The notes under the pieces: model-generated
Database searches by the model: none
What the model was told of the DNA's origin: nothing
What the model saw: the letters and a program-made list of their open reading frames with translations, nothing else
Program-made: the position numbers and the translations under genes
Shown here: one piece after another, positions 323-34,644 of the stretch
Position numbering within the stretch: position 1 is the stretch's first letter
Layout: each line of letters opens with the position of its first letter
Virus record (IMG/VR): IMGVR_UViG_3300025904_000006
Span: 1-40,933 of that record
Direction: 5' to 3' (one strand)
DNA from: a virus
DNA: 40,933 nucleotides

Positions 323-1540
323 ATGCCTCTCACTGATATGCAAATGCGCAAGGCCGAGACTCGCGATAAACCTTATACATTGAGCGACGGGGGCGGCCTC
401 CGAGCACTGGTATCGACCAGTGGCAGCAAGACCTGGCAGTTCCTCTACCGATTCGATGGTCAGCAGCGAACGCTCGTCCTCGGCAAGTACCCCGACATGC
501 CGCTCGCCAAGGCACGTACGGCGCGCGACGTGGCTAAGGGCTTAATCGCGAACGGAACCGACCCGGCAGGCGGAATCGGGAAGCCGAGTAAGCGGAAACT
601 CGATGCGGGCGAACGCACCTTCCGCCAGGTGGCTGAGGAGTTCCACCAAATCTGGCAGAGCGGCAAGAATAAGGCCCACATCGATCGCGTCTGGGCGCGG
701 CTGGAACGTGATGCGTTTCCCTTAATCGGCGATCGGCCGCTGACTGACATCAAACCCGCCGAGATCGTGGCGATGATCCGCTTAGTCGAGGATCGCGGCG
801 CCCTCGATGTGTCGCGCCGGTTGAAGCAAAAATGCGGCGAGGTGTTCGGCTATGCGATCGCTATGGGCTATGCGGAATCCGACCCAACTGCTCGCGTGAA
901 TAAGGCATTGCGGCCGAAGCCGAAGGTCGAGCACATGCCGCGCGTCCCAGTGAAGGACATGCCGAAGCTGCTGCGCGCCATCGACGGTTACCGAATAAGC
1001 GATATGGCACGACTGGGGATGCAGTACACCTTACTCACTGCCACCCGTACCGGGGAGGTGCGCGAAGCGCAGTGGTCGGAGATCGAGGGCGACATCTGGC
1101 GGATACCCGGGTCACGCATGAAGATGGGTCGCGAGCACATCGTTCCGCTTAGTCGGCAGACACTCGAACTGCTGAAGGAGATCGAAACGCATAAGCGCAA
1201 CGAGTATCTGTTCCCCGGCCCCCGGCGACCGATGATGAACTCCAACTTCATGATAAACGCCCTGTATGATTTGGACATGCGCGGCGTGCAGACCGTCCAC
1301 GGATTCAGGAGCCTGTTCAGCACCTACCTAAATGAGAGCGGCCAATTCAATCGGGATTGGATTGAGCTTCAATTAGCCCACGCCGAAGAGGATGAGATTC
1401 GCGCGAGCTACAACGCCGCCGAGTACCTACCGCAACGTGTGAAAATGATGCAGTGGTGGGCCGACGAGTTGGACCGGATGCGCGGCAAACCGGTCGCCTC
1501 TGAAAACGCCGACGATTTCGACGAGTTGTTGCGTCACTGA
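323..1540 (+). CDS. int: P4-type tyrosine integrase
   Basis: Site-specific recombinase, 405 residues, expected to integrate and excise the prophage at the adjacent tRNA. The N-terminal part (about 10-85) is the DUF4102-like arm-binding domain of P4 integrases (TLSDGGGLRALV, then LGKYPDMPLAKAR). The central core-binding domain follows, then the catalytic domain with Arg242 (TATRTGE), Lys267, the HGFR box (His326, Arg329), LAH (353) and the nucleophile Tyr363 (RASYN). The ATG is preceded by GGGGAGA. The C-terminus is acidic (DDFDELL), a motif shared with three other proteins here. An operator-like palindrome overlaps the stop codon. Confidence 0.96.
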   Translation: MPLTDMQMRKAETRDKPYTLSDGGGLRALVSTSGSKTWQFLYRFDGQQRTLVLGKYPDMPLAKARTARDVAKGLIANGTDPAGGIGKPSKRKLDAGERTFRQVAEEFHQIWQSGKNKAHIDRVWARLERDAFPLIGDRPLTDIKPAEIVAMIRLVEDRGALDVSRRLKQKCGEVFGYAIAMGYAESDPTARVNKALRPKPKVEHMPRVPVKDMPKLLRAIDGYRISDMARLGMQYTLLTATRTGEVREAQWSEIEGDIWRIPGSRMKMGREHIVPLSRQTLELLKEIETHKRNEYLFPGPRRPMMNSNFMINALYDLDMRGVQTVHGFRSLFSTYLNESGQFNRDWIELQLAHAEEDEIRASYNAAEYLPQRVKMMQWWADELDRMRGKPVASENADDFDELLRH

Positions 1541-1571
1541 TAACGTGATTGCATTTCACGTGTTAGTTGAT
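1533..1571. promoter_or_regulatory. operator-like palindrome pair upstream of alpA-like gene
   Basis: Two copies of the 17-bp motif shared across the prophage: GTCACTGATAACGTGAT at 1533-1549 and TTCACGTGTTAGTTGAT at 1555-1571, with starts 22 bp apart. The first overlaps the integrase stop codon. They lie 34 to 72 bases before the AlpA-like start and could control that gene or int/xis balance. The regulator is unknown. Confidence 0.6.
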
Positions 1572-1604
1572 TATGTGATTCTCCATGACCGAGCATGGAG
1601 TAGT

Positions 1605-1802
1605 ATGATGGCACCGGACGTTGAATTTTGGCCCATGAAGGTAGTGGTTCAGAAGGTCGGTTTGAGCCAGGCGGAAGTGTACCGCCGGGTAGCCGAGGGC
1701 CGGTTCCCCAGGTCACGAGGCTACGCTGACGGGGGCGTGCGCCGCTTCTGGGTGTCGACCGAAGTGCAAGCCTGGCAGCAGTCGATCCTCGACGCGCAGT
1801 AA
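1605..1802 (+). CDS. AlpA-family small DNA-binding protein (putative excisionase)
   Basis: A 65-residue protein. After a short lead it shows the AlpA/MerR-like winged helix pattern: VVQKVGLSQAEVYRRVAEG, then FPRSRGYADGGVRRFW and an acidic/aromatic tail (EVQAWQQSILDAQ). AlpA-like proteins next to P4 integrases act as excisionases or activators of integrase. The frame is open from 1545, but GGAG at 1597-1600 favours ATG 1605 or 1608. Downstream of int on the same strand, it sits under a pair of operator-like sites. A directionality role is inferred from family and position. Confidence 0.8.
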   Translation: MMAPDVEFWPMKVVVQKVGLSQAEVYRRVAEGRFPRSRGYADGGVRRFWVSTEVQAWQQSILDAQ

Positions 1803-1870
1803 CCCGTCACCCCATCGCCGAACACCCATTTACGGGCCGCTCGCTACCAAGCCGGCGGCCCGAAATTGTT

Positions 1871-2149
1871 TTAAGGATGCTCGTCTGTTTCGCCGGCCCA
1901 ATAGGCGCGAACGCGATCCTTCAGCGAGCGACCCTTGGCGGTTTTAGTGTCGGTGACGATCTTGCGATCGGCCGCCTTCTGCGCTGCAATCTGCCGCCGT
2001 TTCTGGTTGGAAATGTGGCAGCGACCTTTGTGCTGCGCTTTGCCCATGTTGAACTTGCGCGCTGCCAGGTCATCGCGCGTAGCGCCCCTGTCTGCCCGCT
2101 TCCGGGTCAGAGGCTGTAAGTTATCCCAGTCGATACGCTGACGGTCCAT
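1871..2149 (-). CDS. small basic protein, unknown function
   Basis: Leftward gene of 92 residues, rich in Arg, Lys, Gln and Asp, with no membrane segment. It starts MDRQRIDWDNLQPLTRKR and contains a Lys/Arg/Gln helix (NQKRRQIAAQKAADRK) that could bind nucleic acid. A strong ribosome site (AGGGAGGTG on the minus strand, 2151-2159) is spaced correctly before the ATG, so I take it as real even though rightward frames also exist. A 12-bp hairpin lies just upstream in its predicted leader, and an operator-like palindrome plus TTGACA further up. Family not recognised. Confidence 0.7.
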   Translation of the reverse strand: MDRQRIDWDNLQPLTRKRADRGATRDDLAARKFNMGKAQHKGRCHISNQKRRQIAAQKAADRKIVTDTKTAKGRSLKDRVRAYWAGETDEHP

Positions 2150-2170
2150 CGGACACCTCCCTAAACTAAG

Positions 2171-2206
2171 AAACCCCGGCAGCCGGGGAGGTAACTGCCG
2201 GGGTTT
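2171..2206. terminator. 12-bp perfect inverted repeat in leader of leftward gene
   Basis: AAACCCCGGCAG (2171-2182) pairs perfectly with CTGCCGGGGTTT (2195-2206) across a 12-base loop. No T-run follows on either strand beyond the three in the stem. On the minus strand it falls in the predicted 5' leader, about 10 bases before the ribosome site of the 1871-2149 gene, so it could be an attenuator as well as a terminator. Confidence 0.55.
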
Positions 2207-2246
2207 CAGGCCGAAGGAGGCAGGGGGAACCTCAACCTCAGCGAAT

Positions 2247-2281
2247 AATCACGTTTTGCGTGATTCGCAGTGTCTTGTCAA
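2247..2281 (-). promoter_or_regulatory. leftward promoter with perfect palindromic operator
   Basis: AATCACG (2247-2253), TTTTG, CGTGATT (2259-2265) is a perfect 7-bp palindrome and the best copy of the shared motif. Reading leftward, a TTGACA -35 box lies at 2281-2276. A 17-base spacer would put the -10 (CAAAAC, weak) inside the palindrome. This suggests repression of the 1871-2149 gene by occlusion of the -10 region. The rest of the interval 2150-2558 holds only the hairpins and operator sites listed here. Confidence 0.55.
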
Positions 2282-2294
2282 CACCGCATTGAAA

Positions 2295-2326
2295 AGCCCG
2301 GCAGCCGGTTACGCGGTTGTCGGGCT
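2295..2326. terminator. 9-bp GC-rich hairpin
   Basis: AGCCCGGCA (2295-2303) pairs with TGTCGGGCT (2318-2326), with one G-U, across a 14-base loop. Four A residues precede it, so on the minus strand it ends in TTTT, which would make it a leftward terminator. It would protect the 1871-2149 gene from leftward readthrough. Confidence 0.45.
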
Positions 2327-2479
2327 AACCTATTCGATAGTAGTGAGGGTGGATCGCTATCATCAGCCGTTCATACGGGAAAACTTACGCATCGCCGCCT
2401 CCTACTCCGGTTTCCAGGGGTGGCGGGGATTGGCCGCCGGGAGCATGGTTGCCTCCATCATGTGAGTCGGTATCTCTGA

Positions 2480-2543
2480 TGACAGTGTGACCCTGTCAGC
2501 GGTTGACCGCAACTATTAAGTGATTTATCACGTCTTAGTTGAA
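2480..2543. promoter_or_regulatory. methyltransferase control region: three palindromes
   Basis: TGACAG (2480-2485) and CTGTCA (2493-2498) form an unrelated palindrome. Two copies of the shared motif follow, CGCAACTATTAAGTGAT (2508-2524) and ATCACGTCTTAGTTGAA (2527-2543), with starts 19 bp apart. A TTGACC at 2503-2508, 17 bases before TATCAC (2526-2531), could be a promoter overlapping both sites. The methyltransferase starts at 2559. Confidence 0.55.
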
Positions 2544-2558
2544 TCAGTGGGGTGACCG

Positions 2559-3829
<1,271 letters not shown>

Positions 3830-3833
<4 letters not shown>

Positions 3834-4585
3834 GCGACGATTTCGACGACTTCCTGGAGCCACCGAAACGTCGCGTCGGCCGCCCAACAAACGCAGAACG
3901 CGAAGCCCGTCGCGCGGCGGCGGAGCAGGATATGCAGCATCAGGCCGAACTGCGGAAGGCGGCAACCGGTCACCACGCACTGACGCGCGTCGATTTCGGG
4001 ACGCCGGTGCCGCAGCAGTTCCTGGCAGATGTGCTGCACATGGACCCGGCCACCGTGAAGAAGCGGCTGCGGCGCTGCAAGCCCGCCGCGGTCATCAGCA
4101 ACCGGCCCGTCTGGTACTTCCACGAGGCGATACAGTTCCTCGTGAAGCCGAAGATGAATGCCGAGGAGTTTGCTCGCTCCCTGAATAAGGCTGACCTGCC
4201 GCCGGAGATCAACGTCGCATTCTGGAACGCTCAGCGGCAGCGGGTGAAGTACAAGATCGAGGCGCAGGAAGCCTGGGAAACCGAGGACGTGCTGAAGGTT
4301 CTCGGCGAAGTGGCGATGACCCTGAAGGACAGCCTGACGATGGTTGTCGAGGAACTGCGCAACCGGGCGAAGCTGACCGACGAGCAGACGCAGATCGTGT
4401 CTGAGTGCGTCGACGAAATCCGCACCGAGATCCGCGCGAAACTGGTCGAACTGCCGCAGCGATCGGCCACCGGGTCGATGCACGCCAAGCCGCTGTTCGG
4501 GGTCAGCGATGACATCGATACCACGCCGGATGTCGGCGAGGATTCCGGTTGGTGGGACGCTGGTGATGAGGGGGATGATGAATGA
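3830..4585 (+). CDS. terminase small subunit (DUF1441/Nu1-like)
   Basis: A 251-residue protein in the TerS position directly before TerL. It would bind the packaging site and recruit the large subunit to the procapsid. Basic region KRRVGRPTNAEREARRAAAEQ (about 13-33) is followed by a helix-turn-helix-like segment (QFLADVLHMDPATVKKRLRR, about 62-81), as in DUF1441/Nu1 proteins, and a helical middle. The acidic tail may contact TerL. The start (GTG 3830) overlaps the methyltransferase stop. It opens with DDFDDFL, nearly repeating the methyltransferase C-terminus. Lambda Nu1 is 181 residues, so this one is longer. Confidence 0.8.
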
Positions 4586-4797
4586 GCACGCTCGGCACTG
4601 AAGTCGATTTCCGTGGCGCGAAGCGGGAAGTCGAGTTTGAGTACGAAGGTGACGGCATCATCATCTGGTGGTTCACCTACGACGGCGGGGATAGCGGCCA
4701 GAGTGATGCCACCGAAGCCGAGCATAGCGACATTTACCAGCAGCTATGGGCCTACCTCGAAGACTGGTGGGCCGGGCAGGACGATTACCCCGCATGA
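4582..4797 (+). CDS. small acidic protein between terminase subunits
   Basis: A 71-residue, strongly acidic protein (EFEYEGDGIIIWWFTYDGGDSG, then YLEDWWAGQDDYPA) with many Trp and Tyr and no membrane segment. It overlaps both neighbours by ATGA, so translation is coupled to TerS and TerL. I do not recognise the family. Its place suggests a packaging accessory factor, but nothing in the sequence proves that. Confidence 0.7.
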   Translation: MSTLGTEVDFRGAKREVEFEYEGDGIIIWWFTYDGGDSGQSDATEAEHSDIYQQLWAYLEDWWAGQDDYPA

Positions 4798-7001: not shown

Positions 7002-7019
7002 AATAATTTCAACTCGCTG

Positions 7020-7085
7020 TTGACAAACCCTCAACCGCCCTGCTACAGAATCACGCACTAGTTGCATATCCACGTGTTACGTGAT
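7020..7085 (+). promoter_or_regulatory. promoter with two tandem operators before gpW
   Basis: TTGACA (7020-7025), an 18-base spacer and TACAGA (7044-7049) make a sigma70-like promoter. Immediately downstream lie two copies of the shared motif, ATCACGCACTAGTTGCA (7050-7066) and TCCACGTGTTACGTGAT (7069-7085), 19 bp apart as at 2508/2527. The operators would cover the transcription start. The gpW start at 7098 has no clear ribosome site because the operators occupy the leader. Confidence 0.65.
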
Positions 7086-7097
7086 AACTCACGTGGC

Positions 7098-11959: not shown

Positions 11960-11970
11960 TTTGTCCCCGG

Positions 11971-11996
11971 TTCGGTGGGCCACTGTGTCCACCGAA
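11971..11996 (+). terminator. hairpin after major capsid gene
   Basis: TTCGGTGG (11971-11978) pairs perfectly with CCACCGAA (11989-11996) over a 10-base loop. There is no T-run, so it may act as a partial terminator or an mRNA-stabilising hairpin that lowers expression of genes after the capsid. Confidence 0.5.
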
Positions 11997-12012
11997 TCAA
12001 CTAATAGGTGAC
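11996..12012. promoter_or_regulatory. operator-like motif before 12015 gene
   Basis: ATCAACTAATAGGTGAC matches the shared 17-bp motif at 10 or more of its conserved positions. Its right half contains AGGTGA, which also serves as the ribosome site for ATG 12015, so this copy could be coincidental. Confidence 0.4.
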
Positions 12013-12014
12013 CA

Positions 12015-12278
12015 ATGACCGAAAAAGTTGAAACCGCGAAGCCCGCCGCGAAGGCACCCAAGGCTGAAGCTCCCGTGGCAGCGCCCGCGGCCGTCAAGCC
12101 GGTTGTGGCCGTGTGCCGCATCAACGGCAGCATCCTGCCTGGCACCATCTTCCGCCCTGCGGACGAAGGCCAGCGCAAGGAACTGTTCGACCTGAAGGCG
12201 GTCGAAGAGCCGACGGATGCTGACATCGCGCTGTTCGAGAAGCAGTCCGCCCCGGCGGCCGGCGAGGACTTCGCGTAA
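12015..12278 (+). CDS. small Ala/Pro/Lys-rich protein in the gpFI position
   Basis: An 87-residue protein. The N-terminal third is low-complexity Ala/Pro/Lys, followed by a short folded part (VVAVCRINGSILPGTIFRPADEG) and an acidic tail. It lies directly behind the major capsid gene, where lambda has FI, but I see no sequence likeness to FI. The IFRPADE segment is of a kind seen in small phage head-tail proteins. Function unknown. Confidence 0.7.
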   Translation: MTEKVETAKPAAKAPKAEAPVAAPAAVKPVVAVCRINGSILPGTIFRPADEGQRKELFDLKAVEEPTDADIALFEKQSAPAAGEDFA

Positions 12279-14593: not shown

Positions 14594-14626
14594 TTGCTTT
14601 GGGCGCAGAGTCACGTTATACGTGCT
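14594..14626 (+). promoter_or_regulatory. operator and possible promoter before tail tube
   Basis: GTCACGTTATACGTGCT (14610-14626) is a good copy of the shared motif. TTGCTT (14594-14599) with a 17-base spacer to TATACG (14617-14622) could be a promoter whose -10 lies inside the operator. A second half-site (TTCACA, 14627) follows. Confidence 0.5.
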
Positions 14627-21485: not shown

Positions 21486-22334
21486 ATGACGTTCGCCAGC
21501 TATGAGTCGAGCCGTGATCTCGGGAAACCGGTCGACCTCTACTATTTCCGGTACGGCAGCGACCCGGCTGCCTATTACGCCTACACCGATGCCGACTTCC
21601 CGCTGACCGTCGACCACGGTGACGGGCCGATCACCTATGACGCCGTCCCGATCAAGCGCGGCGAGATCAGCTCCACCGGGACGCTGGACAGGACAACCCT
21701 GGAAGTCAGCACCGCCCGCGACGCTGAACTCGCTGACCTGTTTCGCGTCTACCCTCCGGCGCAGGTGGTCACGCTCATCATCCGGCAGAGCCACCTCGAC
21801 GACCCCGATGAGGAGTTCCCGGTGGTCTGGACCGGTCGCATCGTGGCGTCGTCGCGAAAGAAGGACTCCACCGTTTCCTATAGCTGTGAACCGGTTTCGA
21901 CCTCGATGCGGCGGCCGGGGTTGCGGCGTCACTACCAGTATGGATGCCCGCACGCGCTCTACGGCATACAGTGTGGCGCGAACAAGGCTGCCGCCACGGT
22001 GACCGCGACCGTGGACTCCATCAGCGGGACGGAAGTGACGCTCGATGCCGGGTGGACTGCGATCGACGCATCCAAATATCTCGGTGGCATGATCGAATAT
22101 GAGAACGCCGAGGGGGAGATTGAAATCCGGTCGATCCTGCGCGTGACCGGCGACACGCTGACCTGCAGCGGTATCCTGCGAGACCTGGCGCCGGCAGCGT
22201 CGATCAGCGTCATCCTCGGCTGCAGCCGGCAGTTGGGCGACTGCGCGGACGTTCACAACAACATCGTCAACTATGGCGGGCAACCGTGGATTCCGCTGAA
22301 GAACCCGATCGGCTTCTACAACAATTACTACTGA
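21486..22334 (+). CDS. tail-tip protein, BR0599 family (gpL-like)
   Basis: A 282-residue protein of the DUF2163/phage BR0599 type. N-terminal half: PVDLYYFRYGSDPAAYYAYT, TLEVSTARDAELADLF. C-terminal half has four spaced cysteines, YGCPHALYGIQCG and LGCSRQLGDCADVHNN, ending NYGGQPWIPLKNP. Lambda gpL and relatives hold an iron-sulfur cluster with C-terminal cysteines, so cluster binding is plausible here. It follows the 402-residue tail protein by three bases and converges with a leftward gene. Confidence 0.85.
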   Translation: MTFASYESSRDLGKPVDLYYFRYGSDPAAYYAYTDADFPLTVDHGDGPITYDAVPIKRGEISSTGTLDRTTLEVSTARDAELADLFRVYPPAQVVTLIIRQSHLDDPDEEFPVVWTGRIVASSRKKDSTVSYSCEPVSTSMRRPGLRRHYQYGCPHALYGIQCGANKAAATVTATVDSISGTEVTLDAGWTAIDASKYLGGMIEYENAEGEIEIRSILRVTGDTLTCSGILRDLAPAASISVILGCSRQLGDCADVHNNIVNYGGQPWIPLKNPIGFYNNYY

Positions 22335-22849
22335 CGCAACTCGGCCGCCAGGCGACGAGCGACGGATCGGTTGACCCGTATCCGGTCGAACTGCGGCTGG
22401 ATGTTCATCTGCGCCAGTTCGCGATGCCGGTCACCGTCGAACGGCAACCCGTCGGTCAGGAACGACCAGAGCGTTTCAGCACGATCAGTGTCGAACAGGT
22501 GGTCGAACGGGACATGCTGCCCGTCAATGCTATCAAGAGCTGCGGATGCTGAGCGATCGGGAACCGGTAACCCTCTTGCTCGCAGCGATGCGCGAACGGC
22601 GGCGATGTCGCGGTGCAGGATCAGCTTGCGCGCCGGGTGGCTGTTCAACCAGCCCACCCACCGCCAGAGGCCAGTGCAGGCGATACCCGGCGTCCGATTG
22701 GCAGCGCGGGTTGATATTATCTCATCCAGATCCTCGTAGTGCGTCTCCCACAGCGGATCATGCGCGCAGAACGTCTCCGCAGTGGTCAGCCAGTTGGCCG
22801 CCCATGTTGTGGCGCTGCGCGGTAGCCCGATGACCATGAACTGAATCAC
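22328..22849 (-). CDS. sulfotransferase-like protein on the opposite strand
   Basis: A 173-residue protein. It begins IQFMVIGLPRSATTWAANWL, the 5'-phosphosulfate loop of PAPS-dependent sulfotransferases (GxPRSGTTW). It goes on with HRDIAAVRASLRARG, which fits the 3'-phosphate-binding region. It is shorter than typical sulfotransferases (about 250-300). Start is GTG 22849 or ATG 22837; neither has a strong ribosome site. It lies antisense to the whole tail module, between the gpL-like and tail-tip genes, with an operator between it and the next gene. A lysogenic conversion or modification role is inferred. Confidence 0.7.
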   Translation of the reverse strand: MIQFMVIGLPRSATTWAANWLTTAETFCAHDPLWETHYEDLDEIISTRAANRTPGIACTGLWRWVGWLNSHPARKLILHRDIAAVRASLRARGLPVPDRSASAALDSIDGQHVPFDHLFDTDRAETLWSFLTDGLPFDGDRHRELAQMNIQPQFDRIRVNRSVARRLAAELRQ

Positions 22850-22880: not shown

Positions 22881-22897
22881 ATCAACTATTACGTGAT
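22881..22897. promoter_or_regulatory. operator between divergent sulfotransferase and tail-tip genes
   Basis: ATCAACTATTACGTGAT is a good copy of the shared motif, in the only non-coding gap of this stretch (22850-22943). TCTAAA (22875-22880) just before it could be a rightward -10, but no convincing -35 is present. Confidence 0.6.
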
Positions 22898-22943: not shown

Positions 22944-23171
22944 ATGGCCTTCTTCGTCGCACTAGGCATCAGCCTTGCGATCAGCATCATCTCCTATCTC
23001 ATCATGCCGAAGCCGAAGGCTCCCAAGCCCGAGGCGGCGAAGGATCTGGAAGACCCAACGGCTGAAGCCGGTCGCCCGATACCGGTCGTGTTCGGCACGA
23101 TAACGGTCAAGGGTCTCAATGTCCTGTGGTTCGGGGACAAAGGTAAGCGCACCTACAAGGTGAAGGCATGA
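22944..23171 (+). CDS. small membrane-anchored tail-tip assembly protein
   Basis: A 75-residue protein. It has an N-terminal membrane segment (FFVALGISLAISIISYLIM), a Lys/Pro-rich linker (PKPKAPKPEAAKD), then a conserved part (DPTAEAGRPIPVVFGTITVKG). I recall this type from tail-tip clusters just before the hub gene. Role in hub assembly or membrane contact is inferred. ATGA overlap with the following gene. Confidence 0.7.
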   Translation: MAFFVALGISLAISIISYLIMPKPKAPKPEAAKDLEDPTAEAGRPIPVVFGTITVKGLNVLWFGDKGKRTYKVKA

Positions 23172-26178: not shown

Positions 26179-26195
26179 ATCACTTATTACGTGCA
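26179..26195. promoter_or_regulatory. operator-like motif before tail fibre genes
   Basis: ATCACTTATTACGTGCA, a good copy of the shared motif, in the 44-base gap between the hub gene and the first fibre gene. No clear promoter boxes. Confidence 0.55.
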
Positions 26196-26215
26196 AATGA
26201 CCGGAGACATGCGAC

Positions 26216-27082
26216 ATGGCTGAACGTACATTGCCCGGTCTCGGTTTGACCGGCTTCTGGGATCTTGGTGCCGACGGGTGGAAAGATGCCAACGACGTAA
26301 ACCTTCGGCTACTGTCGGCTTTAGTGCAGCCGCGTGCGCTGGATCATGTCGGGACCACGCCTGGATCACCGACTGACGGCGACATCTACCTCTTCACTGC
26401 CGCCCACGCCACGCAACCGAACAAGATTGCAATTCGCGACGACGGGGCGTGGGTCCATGTGACGCCCGCCAGTGGTTGGCTGGTCTACGATGTGGCTGCA
26501 GGATTCTATCGGAAGTTCAGCGGGTCCGCGTGGATCGAGTTTGCGGGCTACACCGACGAGCAGGCACGCGACGCCATCGGCGCCGCACTGATCGAAGGCA
26601 CCGGCATTGATATCACGGTGAATGATGGCGGTGACACAATCACTATCACCAACACCGCACCGTCTTCTGGCTCGTACACCGACGAGCAGGCGCGTGACGC
26701 GATCGGCACCGCACTGGCGAGCAGCGGTGCGATCAATATCGCCGTGAATGACGGTAGTGACACCATCACAATCAGCCAGGGTGCGGTGACCTCCCAAGCG
26801 GGAACAAGTTACACTGCGGTATTGGGGGACGCGAACACCTACATCCGATTCTCTAATGCGTCGGCTGTGTCCTTCACGATCCCGCCAAATAGTTCCGCCG
26901 CTTTCCCGGTCGGCACCGTGATCGAAGTGGAGCAAGCTGGTGCAGGGGCGCTATCCTTCGTCGCCGGGTCGGGGGTCACACTCAACAGCCGATCCTCCGA
27001 TCTAACGCTTGCCGGTCAATATGCGGTGGCCTTCGCTAAGAAGGTCGCGACTGACACTTGGACTGTGAACGGGGATCTCTGA
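26216..27082 (+). CDS. tail fibre protein (DUF2793-like) with internal repeat
   Basis: A 288-residue protein. The first 100 residues (DANDVNLRLLSALVQPRAL, SPTDGDIYLFTAA, GWLVYDVAAGFYRKFSG) follow the DUF2793 pattern found on phage tail appendages. Two copies of a 36-residue unit follow, both starting YTDEQARDAIG and ending in DTITI, then a beta-rich C-terminal part. Probably a receptor-binding or linking fibre. First of three overlapping fibre genes. Confidence 0.8.
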   Translation: MAERTLPGLGLTGFWDLGADGWKDANDVNLRLLSALVQPRALDHVGTTPGSPTDGDIYLFTAAHATQPNKIAIRDDGAWVHVTPASGWLVYDVAAGFYRKFSGSAWIEFAGYTDEQARDAIGAALIEGTGIDITVNDGGDTITITNTAPSSGSYTDEQARDAIGTALASSGAINIAVNDGSDTITISQGAVTSQAGTSYTAVLGDANTYIRFSNASAVSFTIPPNSSAAFPVGTVIEVEQAGAGALSFVAGSGVTLNSRSSDLTLAGQYAVAFAKKVATDTWTVNGDL

Positions 27083-28927: not shown

Positions 28928-28933
28928 TATAGT
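28928..28933 (+). promoter_or_regulatory. possible promoter of PAP2 gene
   Basis: TATAGT fits a -10 box 26 bases before the PAP2 start; the -35 is poor. A half-copy of the shared motif (ATCACT, 28901) lies upstream. The AT-rich leader differs from the flanking phage DNA. Confidence 0.35.
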
Positions 28934-28958
28934 ACTCCGACCGTTAAAGGGGGAGTTT

Positions 28959-29945
28959 ATGATATCGGTAGTTGCAAATTATGCGCGCGAGTGGACCGCT
29001 GTTGAAAGGCGCACCGAGTTCGTCGACCCCCGCAGCATTCCTGCCGCGGCCACCGGAGCGATCCTGCTGTTGCTCGCGCTTGTGAGTTTCGCCGCGACGA
29101 ATTTTACTCTGATTCCTACCAGGATATATCCGGGCTTGCTGCTATATGCTTGGCTCATGCTCGGCGGGGCGATGTCCCGCAAATACGGGATGCTTCGAGT
29201 TTCGGCTTGGCTCACCAGCATCGCAACATTGACTGTAGTATCGGCTGCAGCCCTGATGCTGATGGTAGTTGCGACAGCATGGGCGGCTCCGTTCCAGGAC
29301 TCAGTTCTCATCGAAGCGGATCGGGCTATGGGCTTCAAGTGGTTGGACTTATACAACCTATTCATGGCCAACCCTGTTATGTTTGACATAAACAGTGCTC
29401 TGTATCGCCTCATTGTGCCCCTACCCTACGTTATGATGACTGTCCTGGCATTCAGCGGTGATTACCGAAGGCTGTGGGTGTTGATGCTGGCCTGGGGTGT
29501 ATGTCTGGCATTCACCATAGCGATATACCCCCTGTTCCCTGCGGTCGGACCCTATGAGTATTTTCACATTGATCAGACGACCGCTCCCAAGGCGCTTAGC
29601 GCATACCCTTGGCTGTTTGATGAAAAGATCGCAGCTATCCGAGACCATGGCCAACGAGTGGTCGATCCTAAAGACTTTATCGGTTTAGTCTCGCTGCCGA
29701 GCTTCCACATGGCTTCGGCAGTTTTGTTAGCGTGGGCGGCTCTAACTATTCGCTGGATCGGAAAACCGACAGCCGCCCTTAGCTTAGGTATGGGCCTGGC
29801 CGCGGCGATCAGCGGTAGCCACTACCTCATTGATCTAATCGCCGGCGCAGGTTTGTCGATCCTATCACTATGGATTGCGATGAGACTGACTCCGGTGAAG
29901 ACGGAGACACCTCGACGTCGCCACGGTAGCTTCTCCTGCTACTGA
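28959..29945 (+). CDS. PAP2 / inositolphosphotransferase Aur1-like membrane protein
   Basis: A 328-residue integral membrane protein with about six membrane segments (such as ATGAILLLLALVSFAA and LMLMVVATAWA). The PAP2 motifs are visible: SLPSFHMASA (about 246-255) with the first catalytic His, and SGSHYLIDLIAGAG (about 284-297) with the second His and Asp. The spread and the aromatic YPLFPAVGPYEYF loop suggest the PAP2_3/Aur1 subgroup that moves head groups or phosphate on lipids. Strong ribosome site AGGGGGAG. It looks like a cargo (moron) gene placed after the fibres; a lipid-altering or exclusion role is inferred. Confidence 0.78.
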   Translation: MISVVANYAREWTAVERRTEFVDPRSIPAAATGAILLLLALVSFAATNFTLIPTRIYPGLLLYAWLMLGGAMSRKYGMLRVSAWLTSIATLTVVSAAALMLMVVATAWAAPFQDSVLIEADRAMGFKWLDLYNLFMANPVMFDINSALYRLIVPLPYVMMTVLAFSGDYRRLWVLMLAWGVCLAFTIAIYPLFPAVGPYEYFHIDQTTAPKALSAYPWLFDEKIAAIRDHGQRVVDPKDFIGLVSLPSFHMASAVLLAWAALTIRWIGKPTAALSLGMGLAAAISGSHYLIDLIAGAGLSILSLWIAMRLTPVKTETPRRRHGSFSCY

Positions 29946-30194
29946 TTAGGCGAGGTGGCAACAGCGTTCGGGTTTAAAGATCGCAATCCGTTTCACCTCT
30001 CTGTTGCCCCGGTCCATATGGAAATGATCTAGAAATTCCCATTCGTCTTTGCGGCTGCACATCTCATACGTGCATGTTGTTTCCCGGTGCGGCGTACGCA
30101 TCCAGAACGGCTCATACTTTGGATCGCGCGGGTTGTCCCGGCTGTCACCGAACCAGTCTGGATGCAGCCAAAACGCGAGCGACTCAGTAGCCAT
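29946..30194 (-). CDS. small accessory protein, unknown
   Basis: An 82-residue protein, last gene of the leftward operon, abutting the PAP2 gene end to end. GGAGG just before ATG 30194 fixes the start inside a longer open frame. It is rich in Trp, His, Asp and Arg (FWLHPDWFGDSRDNPRDP, EFLDHFHMDRGNRE) with four cysteines. Family not recognised. Confidence 0.65.
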   Translation of the reverse strand: MATESLAFWLHPDWFGDSRDNPRDPKYEPFWMRTPHRETTCTYEMCSRKDEWEFLDHFHMDRGNREVKRIAIFKPERCCHLA

Positions 30195-30555
30195 CGCTGC
30201 CTCCATGTGGTTGCTGGTCAAACTGCCGCAGCGCTTCGGATATGCAGTTTTTGCAGAGATCCTGCCATCTGGCATCGTCATCTGGCTCAGATCCGATACG
30301 GACGACGGCCTCTACGTCAGTTTCACAGTGGTCACATTCGAGCCTAGCCCATGACGGGTTCCCTATGATGGCTGCCATGTCCCCAGCGCTGCACGTTTCC
30401 AGATCCAAAGCAGATAGCGCATCCCGCATTTGACCGAAAGTCACATTGCGGTTCCAATGCACCGGCACATCGGCTCTGACGCCACCCCATGCTTTCATGA
30501 AGCGGCTTACAGCGGTGCGTATCTCCTCGCGAATTGTCACAACCCGCATCGCCAT
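30184..30555 (-). CDS. accessory protein with paired-cysteine motifs
   Basis: A 123-residue protein with ribosome site AGGGAGG. The middle holds RLECDHCETDVEAVV, and a later DLCKNCISEA gives a CxxC...CxxC zinc-ribbon pattern. The front (REEIRTAVSRFMKAWGGVRAD) is helical. A small zinc-binding protein; target unknown. Overlaps the following gene by 11 bases. Confidence 0.68.
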   Translation of the reverse strand: MAMRVVTIREEIRTAVSRFMKAWGGVRADVPVHWNRNVTFGQMRDALSALDLETCSAGDMAAIIGNPSWARLECDHCETDVEAVVRIGSEPDDDARWQDLCKNCISEALRQFDQQPHGGSDGY

Positions 30556-30571
30556 CTCAACCTCCCTATTG

Positions 30572-30598
30572 GGTAGCGACCTCGGCTACCTATTTTTC
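30572..30598 (+). terminator. rightward terminator-like hairpin
   Basis: GGTAGC (30572-30577) and GCTACC (30585-30590) with a 7-base loop, followed by TATTTTTC. It would stop rightward transcription running antisense into the leftward operon. Confidence 0.45.
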
Positions 30599-30852
30599 TC
30601 TGGACCTTCGGCAACGATGGCCATGTTGCTGTGCTGAACGATTTTCCACCAATCATATTGGTCAGCCTCAAATCGCCTGGAAACCTCTTCGCGAAGTTCC
30701 TCAACCGTGTCAGCGGAACATTTCAGATCCTCGGTCGCCTCACCCGGATAATAGGTGTTGCCTTCATAGAGCAGAAACGCCTTAACCGGCGGCCGATTTC
30801 GTTCATCCTCGCCAAGGTCGTACTCGTAAGGATCGTACTCAACGATTGCCAT
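30586..30852 (-). CDS. small acidic accessory protein, unknown
   Basis: An 88-residue protein starting at ATG 30852 with GGAGG seven bases ahead and a TGATG overlap with the gene before. Acidic and Tyr-rich at the start (VEYDPYEYDLGEDERNRPP), then TVEELREEVSRRFEADQYDWW. No family recognised. Confidence 0.65.
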   Translation of the reverse strand: MAIVEYDPYEYDLGEDERNRPPVKAFLLYEGNTYYPGEATEDLKCSADTVEELREEVSRRFEADQYDWWKIVQHSNMAIVAEGPEKNR

Positions 30853-31046
30853 CACTCAACCTCCACCGTTGCCAGCCGCGCCGCGCTAATGTGGGTGACG
30901 GCCACGCTACCAAATAGCGGATCATCCGGATGCCGCTGACCACCCCACGATGATACAGCATCCTCCGCAAATTTCCTCAACTCAGGCATCGTCACGCCTT
31001 GCTCGACCGTTCCAACGATCGTCAGGACCACCATGGTTCGGTTCAT
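30852..31046 (-). CDS. small accessory protein, unknown
   Basis: A 64-residue protein (MVVLTIVGTVEQGVTMPEL, then AEDAVSSWGGQRHPDDPLF), alpha/beta in look. It overlaps the nucleotidyltransferase gene by ATGA and the following gene by TGATG, so it belongs to the same operon. Function unknown. Confidence 0.62.
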   Translation of the reverse strand: MNRTMVVLTIVGTVEQGVTMPELRKFAEDAVSSWGGQRHPDDPLFGSVAVTHISAARLATVEVE

Positions 31047-32014
31047 GGTTGCACCTGTTCCAGATAGAGTCTCAGCACCATCGCATCAGCCAGTGGGCGA
31101 TCGCTTGCTTCGGGCAGGATCGACACCGCACTGGTGGCCTGCACCTGCGCCACAAGCTGCTCCAGCAGTTCGGCCGTCTGCGCGTATGTCACGAAGCCCG
31201 ATTTGATGAACAGCAGTTCCTCGGCGTCCGGTCGCGGGAAGGTGATTTTACCGGTTTCGAGCAGTTCGATAGCCTGCCGCGCGACACGCACCGCATGACT
31301 GACAGCCTTCCAGTCGATGCCTTCATTCGACGCGGCAGCCCGCGCCCGTTCGCCGTAGTTCTGCCAAACCTTTTCGTACACCTTGACCGCCTCGCCGAGA
31401 GCCACCGTCTCCGGCATTTTCCGGTCGCAGCAGACGACGTGGATGCAGGCGTCCCCGCTGAGATGCGGGATGGCCTCGAACGACATATGCTCCTCAGCTT
31501 CAACTAAGGGTCGCAGCTTGGTGAACACCGTGCCAAGTTTCACATCGGGACCGTAAACGCCAACGTGATGCTCCAGTTCTGATAGGAGTCGCTTCACTGC
31601 GTTCATCCGGCTGCCCTTGATGCCGTACTTGGCAGCCTGGCGCACACAGTAACCCACAAAGCCCTTGCACTGGCGATTCAGCAATTGCGCGCCGACCCCA
31701 CGAACGGCTTCCCACAGTGGGTCGGCCTCCAACGGCGGCGCGAACAGGATCTCGGTCGCGACCGTGTCGCCCTTCATCAGCATGTCGAAGAACTTTTGCA
31801 GCGAGAACGATTGATCGTCGATCGCGTCGGCAGTGTTCTTTCCGCCCAGTTTTGACTCGACGTTACGCTGAATCACTTCTTCCGGTGACTGGAGCAAAAT
31901 CGCCCGGCCGCTCGGCAAATGTACGCCTTTGAAATCCTGGTCGGAGGATGCAGTGGCGGTGCCGTATAGGTGCGAGCCATGCTGCACCCGCACCAGTTGC
32001 CTGACAGCCTTCAT
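31043..32014 (-). CDS. RlaP-like nucleotidyltransferase
   Basis: A 323-residue protein of the polymerase-beta superfamily. Near the N-terminus it shows HGSHLYGTATASSDQDFKGV (residues 12-31), with the GS signature and the metal-binding Asp pair (25 and 27). This pattern is that of the PF10127/RlaP nucleotidyltransferases found in bacteria and large phages. A helical C-terminal part follows. It may add nucleotides to RNA, protein or a small molecule; substrate unknown. ATG 32014 makes an ATGA overlap with the HD-domain gene, so the two are co-translated. Confidence 0.82.
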   Translation of the reverse strand: MKAVRQLVRVQHGSHLYGTATASSDQDFKGVHLPSGRAILLQSPEEVIQRNVESKLGGKNTADAIDDQSFSLQKFFDMLMKGDTVATEILFAPPLEADPLWEAVRGVGAQLLNRQCKGFVGYCVRQAAKYGIKGSRMNAVKRLLSELEHHVGVYGPDVKLGTVFTKLRPLVEAEEHMSFEAIPHLSGDACIHVVCCDRKMPETVALGEAVKVYEKVWQNYGERARAAASNEGIDWKAVSHAVRVARQAIELLETGKITFPRPDAEELLFIKSGFVTYAQTAELLEQLVAQVQATSAVSILPEASDRPLADAMVLRLYLEQVQP

Positions 32015-32595
32015 CGCGGTTCCTTCCCCAACTGTTTCCACCCGCCTTCGAGAAACATCTTCGCAGCTTCCCACAGCCGCGTGTCACCCTTGTCCAGCAT
32101 CGGCAACAGCAAAGCCTTTTCCTTTAGATAGACCACAGCGAAGCCCGGATCGTGACGAACGATAGACTGCGTGTTGGAGCACAGATCAGCCAGTTTGATC
32201 GTCTGCGCGTCAGCGGGCGACACAGCGCTGTGGAGCCGGTCGATTTCCTTCCGCGCGGCCCGGTTGCCGTGTTCCGTCTTGCTAACATCGGTCAACCACG
32301 CGACTAGGTCAGCGATGCGATCACCGAACATCTGCCGCACATCAGCTTCCGTCGCCGGCGTGTCCTCAACCACGTCGTGTAGCAACGCGGCCGCAATCAT
32401 GGTAGCATCGTCGGTGACGCTGGCCACCCAATCGGCCACCTCGAAGCAGTGAACCACATACGGCTCACCGGTGTATTTGCGCTTCTGGTCGCCGTGCATC
32501 ACGGTGGCATATCGCGCGGCTTCCAGGATCAGCGAGTCGCGCGGCCATGGTTCACCGGCACCGCAGCAGCCTTCGGGGCGCAGTATCTGGGTCAT
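32011..32595 (-). CDS. HD-domain small alarmone hydrolase-like protein
   Basis: A 194-residue stand-alone HD domain resembling the (p)ppGpp hydrolase half of RelA/SpoT and MESH1. Seen: KRKYTGEPYVVHCFEVADW (His49), AALLHDVVEDTPAT (His73, Asp74, Glu77-Asp78), and TIKLADLCSNTQSI (Asp137). These match the metal-binding and catalytic positions of that family. No synthetase domain is present. If active, it could lower alarmone levels in the lysogen or infected cell. Ribosome site GGGAGG, start ATG 32595, TGATG overlap upstream. Confidence 0.85.
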   Translation of the reverse strand: MTQILRPEGCCGAGEPWPRDSLILEAARYATVMHGDQKRKYTGEPYVVHCFEVADWVASVTDDATMIAAALLHDVVEDTPATEADVRQMFGDRIADLVAWLTDVSKTEHGNRAARKEIDRLHSAVSPADAQTIKLADLCSNTQSIVRHDPGFAVVYLKEKALLLPMLDKGDTRLWEAAKMFLEGGWKQLGKEPR

Positions 32596-32792
32596 CAACG
32601 CCTCCCGTTCATTTCGATGCTGTGCAACAGGCCGAGCAGCGACGTGTTACCCGCCCACGCATTGTCGCCGAGATTGCTTTCGAGGACATCGGCGATGCGC
32701 TTCAGCGAAACCGCCATGGAGGTGGCCGCCGCCGTCAACGGGTCACGACAGTCGCGGGCTTCTTCCTCGAACTTACCTGCAAGATCGTTCAT
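32595..32792 (-). CDS. small helical accessory protein, unknown
   Basis: A 65-residue helical protein (MNDLAGKFEEEARDC, TSMAVSLKRIADVLESNLG). It overlaps both flanking genes by a few bases. No recognised family; shape is compatible with a small regulator or antidote-like protein, but nothing shows that. Confidence 0.62.
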   Translation of the reverse strand: MNDLAGKFEEEARDCRDPLTAAATSMAVSLKRIADVLESNLGDNAWAGNTSLLGLLHSIEMNGRR

Positions 32793-33136
32793 GCCGCCAC
32801 CCCGCTGAACAGCTTCGCCACCGGCGAGTCGATGAACTCCGACGCAGCGACCTTCGCCATCTCATCAGCCGGCGACCAGCGAAACTTGTCGAGTTGCACG
32901 AGCACCGGTTCGCGGGCCGCGCCGTCAGGCAGTTCCTGCTTCACCCAATAGCCGCTCAGGGTCAGCACCTGGTAGGTCGACTTCGGTGGCGCCGTCGACA
33001 CGTCACGCATCAGCACGTGCGTTTCGTTGACTGACAGCACTTCCCAGAGCGTGGTAGCGTAGGCAACTCCGCAATCCATGCCGCCGTCGACCGGCAGCAC
33101 TGTGTAATAGTGATTGGCTTCGGGTTTGTTGGTCAT
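32789..33136 (-). CDS. accessory protein, unknown
   Basis: A 115-residue protein with ribosome site GGGAG. Beta-rich first half (HYYTVLPVDGGMDCGVAYA, THVLMRDVS, TYQVLTLSGYWVKQELP) and an acidic/hydrophobic tail. Not recognised. First gene after an intra-operon hairpin. Confidence 0.65.
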   Translation of the reverse strand: MTNKPEANHYYTVLPVDGGMDCGVAYATTLWEVLSVNETHVLMRDVSTAPPKSTYQVLTLSGYWVKQELPDGAAREPVLVQLDKFRWSPADEMAKVAASEFIDSPVAKLFSGVAA

Positions 33137-33163
33137 AAGTGACTCCCGCTGATTTCATCCTCG

Positions 33164-33185
33164 CCCCGGCCACTGTTGGCCGGGG
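33164..33185 (-). terminator. 8-bp hairpin inside leftward operon
   Basis: CCCCGGCC (33164-33171) pairs perfectly with GGCCGGGG (33178-33185) across ACTGTT. No T-run. It lies between the membrane gene ending at 33196 and the gene starting at 33136, so it may split the operon into two expression levels. Confidence 0.5.
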
Positions 33186-33195
33186 TCCGGTGACG

Positions 33196-33447
33196 TCAGG
33201 CTGCGTTGCTGTGTTTGATGGCCCAACGGTAGAGCGCTCGCGCGGGGAAGTACGCGGTGGCTACGGCCAGCATTACCGGCCAAAAGATGCTGCCGAAAAT
33301 GCTGCCGATCAGGAAACCTTCGGTGACGGTGTCGCGATCATTGTACCGGCGCCGCTCCATAGCTGGCACACCGAGCAACCCAAGCACAGTCGCCGCTATG
33401 ATGACGCCGACCGCCAGCCACCCGGTAATGAACAGGATTATACCCAT
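33196..33447 (-). CDS. small membrane protein
   Basis: An 83-residue protein with two membrane segments (GIILFITGWLAVGVIIAATV and GFLIGSIFGSIFWPVMLAV) joined by a charged loop (ERRRYNDRDT). The frame extends upstream inside the SPFH gene, but GGGAGG and the TGATG overlap set the start at 33447. It probably works with the SPFH lipoprotein before it. Confidence 0.72.
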   Translation of the reverse strand: MGIILFITGWLAVGVIIAATVLGLLGVPAMERRRYNDRDTVTEGFLIGSIFGSIFWPVMLAVATAYFPARALYRWAIKHSNAA

Positions 33448-34289
33448 CACTGGCCTCCCTGGACACAGGGCGCGGCCGCCGAGCAGTAGACAGTGGAGGG
33501 CATCGAGCCGTCCCACTTCTTCACCCATTCGTAGGCGACGATCTTCTGGTTGCCAGCGATGGCGTCGCCCCGGATCTTGATGGCGGCCGCGTCTGCCTGT
33601 GCTTTGATCGTCTGCGCTTCGGCCCACGCCTTGGCTTCGGCGACGCGAGCGCGACCTTCGGCTTCCTTCGTGGCGACCGTCGCCTGTGCCGCAATCGCAG
33701 CCTGCTCATTCTGCGCCCGAGCGTTGATGCGGTTCAGGATTGCACCCGGAATGCGGACAGGGCCGGCAAAATCGAGCTGGTCGATGTGGAGACCCAGCGG
33801 CTCAAAATACTCGCGGGCAATCTTCAGCGCGTTGCCGATGAGTTGGGTCTTCTTCGGCCCGTAGATTTCCTCGACCGTCATCGTCGAAGCCGCGGTCACC
33901 AGTGAGGAGCGAACCTTGTTGCGCAGCGGCCCTGCTAGGATGCCGTCCATATCGGTGCGGTAGGTCTGGAACAGCTTGGGGGCTTTGGTGGCATCCACGC
34001 GATAGGCCACGGTGATGTCGGACTGGACGATCAACCCGTTGCGATCCTGGAAGGAGAGTTCTTCGTTCTTCTCGTCGGAGCGCTGCCAGGTATAGTTGTT
34101 CACGAAGATCGGGTACTCGTAGACGTCGACACCGATCATCGTGAAATATGTCCCGACGCCGAGGGCGCGTTCCTGGACACCCGCGTCGCTGCCGTAGCGG
34201 TTCACCTTGACGCCGACATGGCCGGGATCGACCCGCGTACATGCAGCAAGGCTGAGTGCCATCATCGAAACTGCGATAATCTTCTTCAT
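33447..34289 (-). CDS. SPFH/band-7 domain lipoprotein
   Basis: A 280-residue protein. A lipoprotein signal (MKKIIAVSMMALSLAAC, lipid-modified Cys17) is followed by a band-7 domain: VDPGHVGVKVNRYG, RNGLIVQSDITVAYRVD and LAGPLRNKVRSSLVTAAS. A long Ala/Glu/Lys coiled coil (about 185-240) comes next, as in prohibitins and HflK/C. Such proteins form membrane rings that control proteases or membrane domains. ATG 34307 in the same frame is coupled to the preceding stop, but the signal starts at 34289. Flanked by small membrane genes on both sides. Confidence 0.88.
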   Translation of the reverse strand: MKKIIAVSMMALSLAACTRVDPGHVGVKVNRYGSDAGVQERALGVGTYFTMIGVDVYEYPIFVNNYTWQRSDEKNEELSFQDRNGLIVQSDITVAYRVDATKAPKLFQTYRTDMDGILAGPLRNKVRSSLVTAASTMTVEEIYGPKKTQLIGNALKIAREYFEPLGLHIDQLDFAGPVRIPGAILNRINARAQNEQAAIAAQATVATKEAEGRARVAEAKAWAEAQTIKAQADAAAIKIRGDAIAGNQKIVAYEWVKKWDGSMPSTVYCSAAAPCVQGGQ

Positions 34290-34303
34290 GGTCCCTGTTC
34301 TCC

Positions 34304-34501
34304 TCATTCACCGCGCCAGAGCGGTGCAATTGCTTTGATGAAACGGTAGTCGAAGTAGGCAGCGGCAAACGGCAGCATCACTGCCAGGATGAGCGCACCA
34401 TCGTTCTGCGTGTTGACCAGAGCCGGCAGGATCATTCGCGCCAGCAGCAGGTTGCCGATGATCACCGCTGCGCAGACCAGCAGGATCGCACCCTTTTCCA
34501 T
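34304..34501 (-). CDS. small membrane protein, first gene of leftward operon
   Basis: A 65-residue protein with two membrane segments (GAILLVCAAVIIGNLLLA and GALILAVMLPFAAAYF). The frame opens at 34531, but AGGGAG before ATG 34501 sets the start. Promoter and operators lie directly upstream. Likely partner of the SPFH lipoprotein. Confidence 0.72.
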   Translation of the reverse strand: MEKGAILLVCAAVIIGNLLLARMILPALVNTQNDGALILAVMLPFAAAYFDYRFIKAIAPLWRGE

Positions 34502-34526
34502 TTTCGAGTCTCCCTCAGTGATCAAA

Positions 34527-34580
34527 ATCACGAATCAAGTGATTATGGAATCACCCCCAACAAGTCAACCGTTAGTTGAA
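34527..34580 (-). promoter_or_regulatory. promoter and two operators of leftward operon
   Basis: Reading leftward: TTGACT (-35, 34568-34563), 17 bases, TAATCA (34545-34540; or CATAAT at 34547-34542 with 15 bases). Operator GTCAACCGTTAGTTGAA (34564-34580) overlaps the -35, and ATCACGAATCAAGTGAT (34527-34543) overlaps the -10. Occupancy of either would block the promoter. Confidence 0.62.
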
Positions 34581-34595
34581 ACGACAGCCGTTTCA

Positions 34596-34644
34596 TTGTG
34601 GTTATGGCGATTCGATGCTAAAGAGGAATCACTTATGCCGTGAA
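34596..34644 (+). promoter_or_regulatory. rightward promoter with operator before lysis module
   Basis: TTGTGG (34596-34601), 17 bases, TAAAGA (34619-34624, preceded by TGC). The motif copy ATCACTTATGCCGTGAA (34628-34644) starts four bases after the -10, as at 7050. It would drive the 34670 gene and the lysis module. Confidence 0.58.

What the first reader, a model, noticed from the sequence alone, without database searches (positions are those of the whole stretch)
1533..34644. One palindromic operator motif repeated about fourteen times across the prophage
A 17-bp motif, roughly RTCAMN-TNTTA-CGTGAT with dyad symmetry, recurs at 1533, 1555, 2247 (perfect palindrome), 2508, 2527, 7050, 7069, 11996, 14610, 22881, 26179, 34527, 34564 and 34628. 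Nearly all copies fall in the few non-coding gaps, at the start of each module (int/xis, leftward gene, methyltransferase, head, tail, tail tip, fibres, accessory operon, lysis). This resembles the dispersed operators or stoperators of some temperate phages and suggests one regulator silences every module directly rather than only the early promoters.
Basis: seen in the sequence. Interest (0 to 1): 0.85.

Follow-up and report, generated by a model that had tools for sequence, protein, structure and literature searches.

The report
Repressor operators scattered through a prophage
A short mirror-image DNA sequence sits in front of nearly every gene block of this dormant virus and its relatives, most likely as the binding site of one viral repressor protein that switches off early and late genes directly while the virus is dormant.

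Summary
All 14 listed sites are real (2247 is 2248), and a matrix built only from relatives recovers them plus a 15th at 7008; shuffled sequence gives almost none. The window is the structural half of a Casjensviridae (chi-like) provirus. Full-size relatives carry 18-25 copies, mostly in the 8-11% non-coding DNA, at the same places: before xis, gpW, the gene after the major capsid gene, tail genes, the primase-side HTH gene, the replication operon and the repressor gene. A host genome has none in 34 kb of non-coding DNA. Half-sites vary independently, so this is a DNA site for a dimer, not an RNA hairpin. Sites often overlap sigma70-like promoters and pair at 18-20 or 40-42 bp. Enrichment is present in all 13 genomes with an integrase/CI cassette and absent in 6 without. 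Best explanation: operators of the cassette's CI-type repressor, silencing early and late modules directly. That gene and the whole early half are missing from this record. No binding has been measured. The kind is known; this family's version seems undescribed.

The parts
1533..1549 (.). operator GTCACTGATAACGTGAT, overlaps int stop, 5' of xis
   Evidence: 15.7 bits on relatives-only matrix; a site lies upstream of the xis/AlpA gene in 6/6 genomes
1555..1571 (.). operator TTCACGTGTTAGTTGAT, 5' of xis, 22 bp from previous
   Evidence: 21.1 bits
2248..2264 (.). operator ATCACGTTTTGCGTGAT, 5' of leftward gene 1871-2149; overlaps TTGACA-N17-CAAAAC on minus strand
   Evidence: 21.0 bits; promoter-like score 8.5
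2508..2524 (.). operator CGCAACTATTAAGTGAT, between -35 TTGACC and -10 TATCAC
   Evidence: 14.9 bits; promoter-like score 8.9
2527..2543 (.). operator ATCACGTCTTAGTTGAA, overlaps the same -10; 5' of the C5-methyltransferase gene; 19 bp from previous
   Evidence: 20.6 bits
   Evidence: 13.1 bits; 42 bp from 7050; promoter-like score 8.4
7050..7066 (.). operator ATCACGCACTAGTTGCA, 5' of gpW
   Evidence: 11.1 bits; a site upstream of gpW in 6/6 genomes
7069..7085 (.). operator TCCACGTGTTACGTGAT, 5' of gpW, 19 bp from 7050
   Evidence: 11.1 bits
11996..12012 (.). operator ATCAACTAATAGGTGAC directly behind a hairpin after the major capsid gene; right half AGGTGA can serve as Shine-Dalgarno; ATG 2 bp on
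   Evidence: 22.9 bits; same arrangement in G003, G005, G010 and G011; no promoter-like match (2.9)
14610..14626 (.). operator GTCACGTTATACGTGCT, 5' of major tail protein; holds a -10-like TATACG
   Evidence: 15.3 bits; site in 5/6 genomes
22881..22897 (.). operator ATCAACTATTACGTGAT, 5' of tail gene 22944-23171
   Evidence: 23.6 bits; site in 5/6 genomes
26179..26195 (.). operator ATCACTTATTACGTGCA, 5' of fibre-region gene 26216-27082
   Evidence: 15.9 bits
34527..34543 (.). operator ATCACGAATCAAGTGAT over -10 TAATCA of the leftward accessory promoter
   Evidence: 19.8 bits; promoter-like score 7.3
34564..34580 (.). operator GTCAACCGTTAGTTGAA over -35 TTGACT of the same promoter
   Evidence: 19.1 bits
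34628..34644 (.). operator ATCACTTATGCCGTGAA, 5' of the rightward lysis-region genes
   Evidence: 14.2 bits
323..1540 (+). tyrosine integrase (part of the lysogeny cassette)
   Evidence: phrog_1, Phage_integrase
1605..1802 (+). AlpA-type excisionase
   Evidence: PF05930 Phage_AlpA, phrog_66

Best explanation
The 15 dyads are operators of a phage-encoded, dimeric, CI-type helix-turn-helix repressor. Its gene lies in relatives between the replicative helicase and the xis/int genes and is missing from this truncated record. Each HTH reads one 8-bp half-site, (A/T/G)TCA(A/C)(C/G/T)NN; two half-sites meet around a shared central base. In a lysogen, repressor dimers, often cooperating on pairs 18-20 or 40-42 bp apart, occupy sites at each module. 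Most cover the -35, spacer or -10 of a sigma70-type promoter and block initiation. A few sit without a promoter inside the late operon, for example behind the terminator-like hairpin after the major capsid gene, and would act as roadblocks to read-through transcription. Early, late, lysis and accessory genes are thus all silenced directly, and superinfecting relatives reading the same operators would be silenced too. Shown by computation: the sites, their conservation, phage specificity, symmetry, spacing, promoter overlap, and the link with the cassette. Inferred: that this repressor is the binder, cooperativity, repression, roadblocking, immunity.
For: Sites are far above chance, also with a matrix independent of the window. 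Full-size relatives hold 18-25 sites each. De novo dyad counting, with no motif given, returns the same geometry (TCAAC-N5-GTTGA, TCACG-N5-CGTGA or ACAAC-N5-GTTGT) as a top dyad in most cassette-bearing genomes from alpha-, beta- and gammaproteobacterial phages, and not in two virulent ones. WCAM-N7-KTGW is enriched 5-20-fold in the non-coding DNA of 13/13 cassette-bearing genomes and not in Chi, pCB2051-A, PspYZU01, Enc34, BcepNazgul or phiAxp-2; Fisher p = 4e-5, not corrected for kinship. Phages of like hosts split as expected: AH2 has it, BcepNazgul does not; AchV4 has it, phiAxp-2 does not. Operator variants follow the repressor's predicted recognition helix: Q at its second residue only in AH2 and SS2019XI, the two with mostly A instead of T at base 2; helices with E-A have 70-94% A at base 5, those with E-T or E-S 12-56%. 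Sites flank the repressor gene. Half-sites are statistically independent. Promoter overlap 6.57 versus 5.11 +- 0.18 with flanks shuffled. Spacing peaks 18-20 and 40-42 bp. Site presence is bimodal by gene family: of 34 shared families 21 never have one, while 8 have one in at least 4 genomes. Literature: RcD-cluster phages (RcPescado) form immune lysogens and carry an annotated immunity repressor (PMC8601537).
Against: No binding or expression data exist. The cassette also brings int and xis (AlpA has an HTH), so the link does not single out the CI gene. A second HTH gene next to the primase has a site upstream in 5/5 genomes and could bind the same operators. DSS3-P1 and RcPescado show weaker enrichment. 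Two genomes (RcPescado, AH2) have no good site directly in front of the repressor gene. AchV4 gave no stable lysogens in its authors' hands (PMC7996906). The window itself lacks the repressor. The sample is 13 against 6 and not corrected for kinship.
Confidence: 0.8

Rival explanations
1. The sites belong to the small (about 100 aa) HTH protein encoded beside the primase, acting like Cro or as an early/late switch, alone or sharing the operators with the CI-type repressor.
For: A site lies upstream of this gene in 5/5 relatives; the protein has a predicted HTH and AchV4_0071 was called CI-related by its authors (PMC7996906).
Against: Virulent members keep an HTH gene at this place (Chi gp3, Enc34 ORF2, LOKG_00011) yet have no dyads. 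In SS2019XI this protein resembles the Chi/Enc34 type while its operators are of the temperate type.
Confidence: 0.13
2. The dyads are activator sites or phage promoter elements needed to turn modules on in lytic growth.
For: They overlap promoter-like sequences; phage late genes are often activated.
Against: Virulent relatives with the same operon order do without them. The registers vary (over -35, spacer, -10, or downstream), as blocking sites do, whereas activator sites keep a fixed distance. Some sites have no promoter.
Confidence: 0.04
3. RNA hairpins overlapping ribosome-binding sites that control translation.
For: Dyad symmetry, and a few sites lie 1-3 bp from a start codon with AGGTGA inside.
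Against: Over 106 sites the two arms pair no more often than if independent, with no covariation; sites lie up to 215 bp from the start codon and in divergent gaps.
Confidence: 0.02
4. Binding sites of a host regulator or nucleoid protein.
For: None found beyond the intergenic position.
Against: 0 hits in 34 kb of host non-coding DNA; the same geometry occurs in phages of hosts in three classes; cassette-free relatives lack it.
Confidence: 0.01

Closest known systems
Cluster A mycobacteriophage (L5-type) stoperators and immunity repressor (PMC9283540)
   Same: Many repressor sites spread over the phage genome and tied to lysogeny.
   Different: There an asymmetric site is bound by a monomer with two DNA-binding domains and elongation is stopped; here the site is symmetric with independent halves, the candidate binder is a single-HTH CI type, and many sites overlap promoters.
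SPbeta repeated element SPBRE and master repressor MrpR (PMC10516654)
   Same: A repeated 15-bp element in intergenic regions bound by one master repressor that maintains lysogeny.
   Different: MrpR is a recombinase-like protein, a monomer in solution; its binding motif came from 9 ChAP-seq peaks. Here 18-25 symmetric sites and an HTH repressor, different phage family and hosts.
Streptomyces phage phiC31 conserved inverted repeats (from memory, not checked; one search found no held paper)
   Same: Dispersed 17-bp inverted repeats, mostly intergenic, bound by the phage repressor.
   Different: Different repressor family and host; no relation detected or tested here.
Lambda/186/TP901-1 CI repressors
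   Same: N-terminal HTH of lambda-CI type (PF01381 hits; structure matches to TP901-1 CI, P22 c2, lambda CI), 17-bp operators, close pairs; AH2 gp70 was matched to 186 CI by its authors (PMC3483164).
   Different: Those act at one or two control regions and leave late genes to an activator or antiterminator (general knowledge); here about 20-25 sites cover late modules too. C-terminal domain not recognised as S24 peptidase or 186 CI C-terminal domain.

Membership tests
Casjensviridae (chi-like siphoviruses) | TerL of the family and conserved order TerS-TerL-gpW-portal-protease-decoration-major capsid-tail | tested here: met
   TerL 42-47% identical to many Casjensviridae over 93-99% of its length; same gene order as relatives and AchV4/Chi; gpW PF02831
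Casjensviridae (chi-like siphoviruses) | early half with primase, polymerase, exonuclease, helicase | tested here: not met
   Absent from the 41-kb record; no shared early families found in the window; explained by a truncated record, not taken as evidence against membership
Dispersed-operator lysogeny control (stoperator, SPBRE, CIR type) | many copies of one site, phage-specific, mainly in gaps between genes | tested here: met
Dispersed-operator lysogeny control (stoperator, SPBRE, CIR type) | sites go with the lysogeny cassette | tested here: met
   13/13 against 0/6
Dispersed-operator lysogeny control (stoperator, SPBRE, CIR type) | bound by the immunity repressor | not testable with these tools
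   helix-operator covariation is indirect support
L5-type stoperators in the strict sense | asymmetric site | tested here: not met
   site symmetric with independent half-sites
L5-type stoperators in the strict sense | sites stop elongation away from promoters | tested here: inconclusive
   promoter overlap in excess for late and other sites; the site after the major capsid gene is promoter-free in five genomes
CI-type repressor (candidate binder, in relatives) | N-terminal lambda-CI-type HTH | tested here: met
   PF01381 above or near cut-off in most, phrog_2967; structure matches
CI-type repressor (candidate binder, in relatives) | self-cleaving S24 C-terminal domain (lambda type) | tested here: not met
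   no S24 or 186-type C-terminal hit in Pfam or NCBIfam

The most novel reading that the evidence does not exclude
The repressor of these phages joins a lambda-CI-type HTH to a C-terminal domain with a dead PD-(D/E)XK (Holliday-resolvase-like) fold, which oligomerises dimers bound at 20-25 dispersed, phased operator pairs so that the whole prophage is gathered and silenced as one domain, rather than promoter by promoter.
Probability: 0.1. Interest if true: 0.8.

Novelty: new variant of a known kind. Interest (0 to 1): 0.6.

Why it matters
Casjensviridae include chi and many phages considered for therapy, and how their temperate members control lysogeny was not described in the papers found. 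The dyad is a simple sequence test: in this sample, genomes with the lysogeny cassette have it and cassette-free ones do not, and the operator variant predicts which phages should share immunity. It also offers a proteobacterial case of genome-wide direct silencing of late genes, so far best studied in mycobacteriophages and SPbeta.

Tried and rejected
Iterating a loose matrix on the whole window drifted to codon-like patterns and was dropped. RNA-hairpin reading rejected for lack of covariation. Host-factor reading rejected by host density. Chance rejected. A repressor was sought in the window and none found; the early half is absent. Search for a direct repeat marking both att ends of the window: none of 25 bp or more. 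Terminal inverted repeats around the IS1595 transposase not found with a simple search. The resolvase-like fold of the repressor's C-terminal domain appeared in one model but not convincingly in a second, so it is only in the novel case. Literature searches for dispersed operators in Casjensviridae found no report (the AH2, AchV4 and Rhodobacter phage papers do not mention operators or palindromes). One genome-contig scan gave only two loci.
Full report
WHAT THE WINDOW IS. The record is a 40,933-base IMG/VR virus sequence. It starts with tRNA-Met (24-99) and an integrase (323-1540), an AlpA-type excisionase (about 1605-1802), a C5-methyltransferase, TerS and TerL, head and tail genes, a leftward accessory operon and a lysis region. 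TerL matches Casjensviridae (chi-like siphoviruses) over nearly its whole length. Related viral contigs with TerL 34-76% identical were fetched, five of them in full record length (65-73 kb: G003, G005, G008, G010, G011). All five have a second half of about 30-35 kb with primase, polymerase, exonuclease, helicase and two regulator genes that the window lacks. The window ends just beyond an IS1595 transposase (38867-39766), with a leftward gene on its far side and no att repeat of 25 bp or more. I read it as a record cut off in or near the early region, so the repressor is missing from the record, not shown to be missing from the phage.

THE SITES. All 14 listed 17-mers exist, one shifted by a base. 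A matrix learned only from the five relatives scores them 11.1-23.6 bits; 12 window hits reach 14 bits against 0.45 in shuffled sequence. It adds 7008-7024. The first attempt, iterating a loose matrix on the window alone, drifted into coding sequence and was discarded. The full-size relatives hold 18-25 sites of 13 bits or more, about 70-90% of them in the 8-11% of the DNA that is non-coding. In the Sphingopyxis host of G011, 400 kb gave no non-coding hit in 34 kb of non-coding DNA, against 36 per 10 kb of non-coding DNA in the prophage; a looser pattern gave 270 in 4.8 Mb against 26 in 65 kb.

CONSERVED PLACES. Of 34 gene families shared by at least five of the six genomes, 21 never have a site upstream and eight have one in at least four genomes: excisionase 6/6, gpW 6/6, the gene after the major capsid gene 5/5, major tail protein 5/6, tail gene 22944 5/6, the primase-side HTH gene 5/5, the first gene of the replication operon 5/5, the repressor gene 4/5.

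DNA SITE FOR A DIMER. Over 106 sites the two arms match each other no more often than expected if each half varied on its own. The bases at position 5 (A or C) and 6 of one arm do not predict those of the other. That argues against an RNA hairpin and for a symmetric protein dimer that accepts two kinds of half-site. Neighbouring sites are 18-20 bp apart in 13 of 35 close pairs and 40-42 bp in 8 of 35, against 1.25 expected per such bin, which suggests cooperative dimers about two and four helix turns apart.

PROMOTERS. Promoter-like sequences overlapping the sites score 6.57 on average, against 5.11 +- 0.18 when the flanks are shuffled and the site kept. The commonest arrangement has the right arm (GTTGAC) serving as the -35 box; others place the site between -35 and -10 or over the -10. 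In the window, 2508/2527 lie on TTGACC-N17-TATCAC and 34564/34527 lie on the -35 and -10 of TTGACT-N17-TAATCA. The excess holds for sites inside the structural operon (6.29 against 4.68 +- 0.34) as well as for the rest (6.37 against 4.94 +- 0.20). An exception recurs: the site after the major capsid gene (11996 here; also G003, G005, G010, G011) lies directly behind a hairpin, 1-3 bp before the start codon, with the half-site AGGTGA in Shine-Dalgarno position and no good promoter. Such a site could only act as a roadblock or on read-through transcripts; this is inference.

WHO BINDS. In phages with a lysogeny cassette a CI-type regulator, excisionase and integrase lie between or close to helicase and TerS; in Chi, Enc34, BcepNazgul, PspYZU01, pCB2051-A and phiAxp-2 helicase and TerS are neighbours or nearly so, without integrase. 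The dyad is enriched 5-20-fold in non-coding DNA of 13/13 of the first group and not in the 6 of the second (Fisher p = 4e-5 without correction for kinship). In the window the cassette is seen only as int and xis. De novo counting without a given motif finds the same geometry as a top dyad in most of them (weak in RcPescado, not found in DSS3-P1). The operator letters follow the predicted recognition helix: Q at its second residue in AH2 and SS2019XI goes with A in place of T at base 2; helices with E-A prefer A at base 5, those with E-T or E-S mix A and C. AchV4 (Achromobacter) and N133 (Klebsiella) share the helix SHEAVRKWF and the operator TTCAAC..GTTGAA. Sites flank the regulator gene in most genomes. 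The regulator is a lambda-CI-type HTH protein (phrog_2967, PF01381) without a recognised S24 C-terminal domain. The rival, the small HTH protein beside the primase, has a site upstream in 5/5 genomes, but virulent phages keep an HTH gene there without any dyads. It may still share the operators as a Cro-like partner.

MECHANISM, WITH STATUS. Shown by computation: sites, conservation, phage specificity, independence of halves, spacing, promoter overlap, link with the cassette. Inferred: the CI-type protein binds them; it blocks promoters of early and late modules in the lysogen; a few sites act as roadblocks; shared operators give shared immunity. Not shown: any binding or expression.

COMPARISON. 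It works like the dispersed-operator systems of cluster A mycobacteriophages (PMC9283540), SPbeta (PMC10516654) and, from memory, phiC31 and P1. It is not an L5-type stoperator system in the strict sense, since the site is symmetric and often at promoters. I found no report of it in Casjensviridae: the AH2, AchV4 and Rhodobacter phage papers name repressor genes but not operators, and other searches were empty. Most subscription papers were not searchable.

LIMITS. Genes were called with a simple codon-usage script, not a standard gene finder. The comparison set is small and partly chosen by convenience. AchV4 carries the cassette but gave no stable lysogens, so the link is to the cassette, not to proven lysogeny. 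The structure models of the repressor are of middling confidence.

Noticed in passing
window 38565-40933: IS1595-family transposase next to the metallophosphoesterase gene near the record's right end; beyond it a leftward gene (39938-40831) without Pfam match. The whole early half of the phage is missing from the record.
   Followed up: partly
window 11960-12015 and the equivalents in G003, G005, G010, G011: Conserved hairpin right after the major capsid gene, followed within a base or so by an operator whose right half doubles as Shine-Dalgarno of the next gene.
   Followed up: partly
L035:2435-3118, model: C-terminal domain of the CI-type repressor resembles archaeal Holliday junction resolvase Hjc (PD-(D/E)XK fold) in one AlphaFold model (E 7e-4), not reproduced convincingly in a second; no E-x-K motif seen.
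   Followed up: partly
window 31043-32595: Leftward accessory operon with an RlaP-type nucleotidyltransferase next to an HD-domain protein; the operon's promoter carries two operators, so it too would be silent in a lysogen.
   Followed up: no
window 22328-22849: Putative leftward gene without a Pfam match inserted in the rightward tail operon; G003 has a leftward DnaJ-like gene at the same place, and operators lie between it and the next tail gene in both.
   Followed up: no
window 28959-29945: PAP2-superfamily membrane phosphatase-like gene between the fibre genes and the accessory operon, possible lysogenic conversion gene.
   Followed up: no
L082:15775-16032 and orthologues: A GapR-like nucleoid protein and an ECF-sigma-like protein are encoded in the early half of the relatives; RHph_X2_30 also has an annotated GcrA-like regulator.
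   Followed up: no
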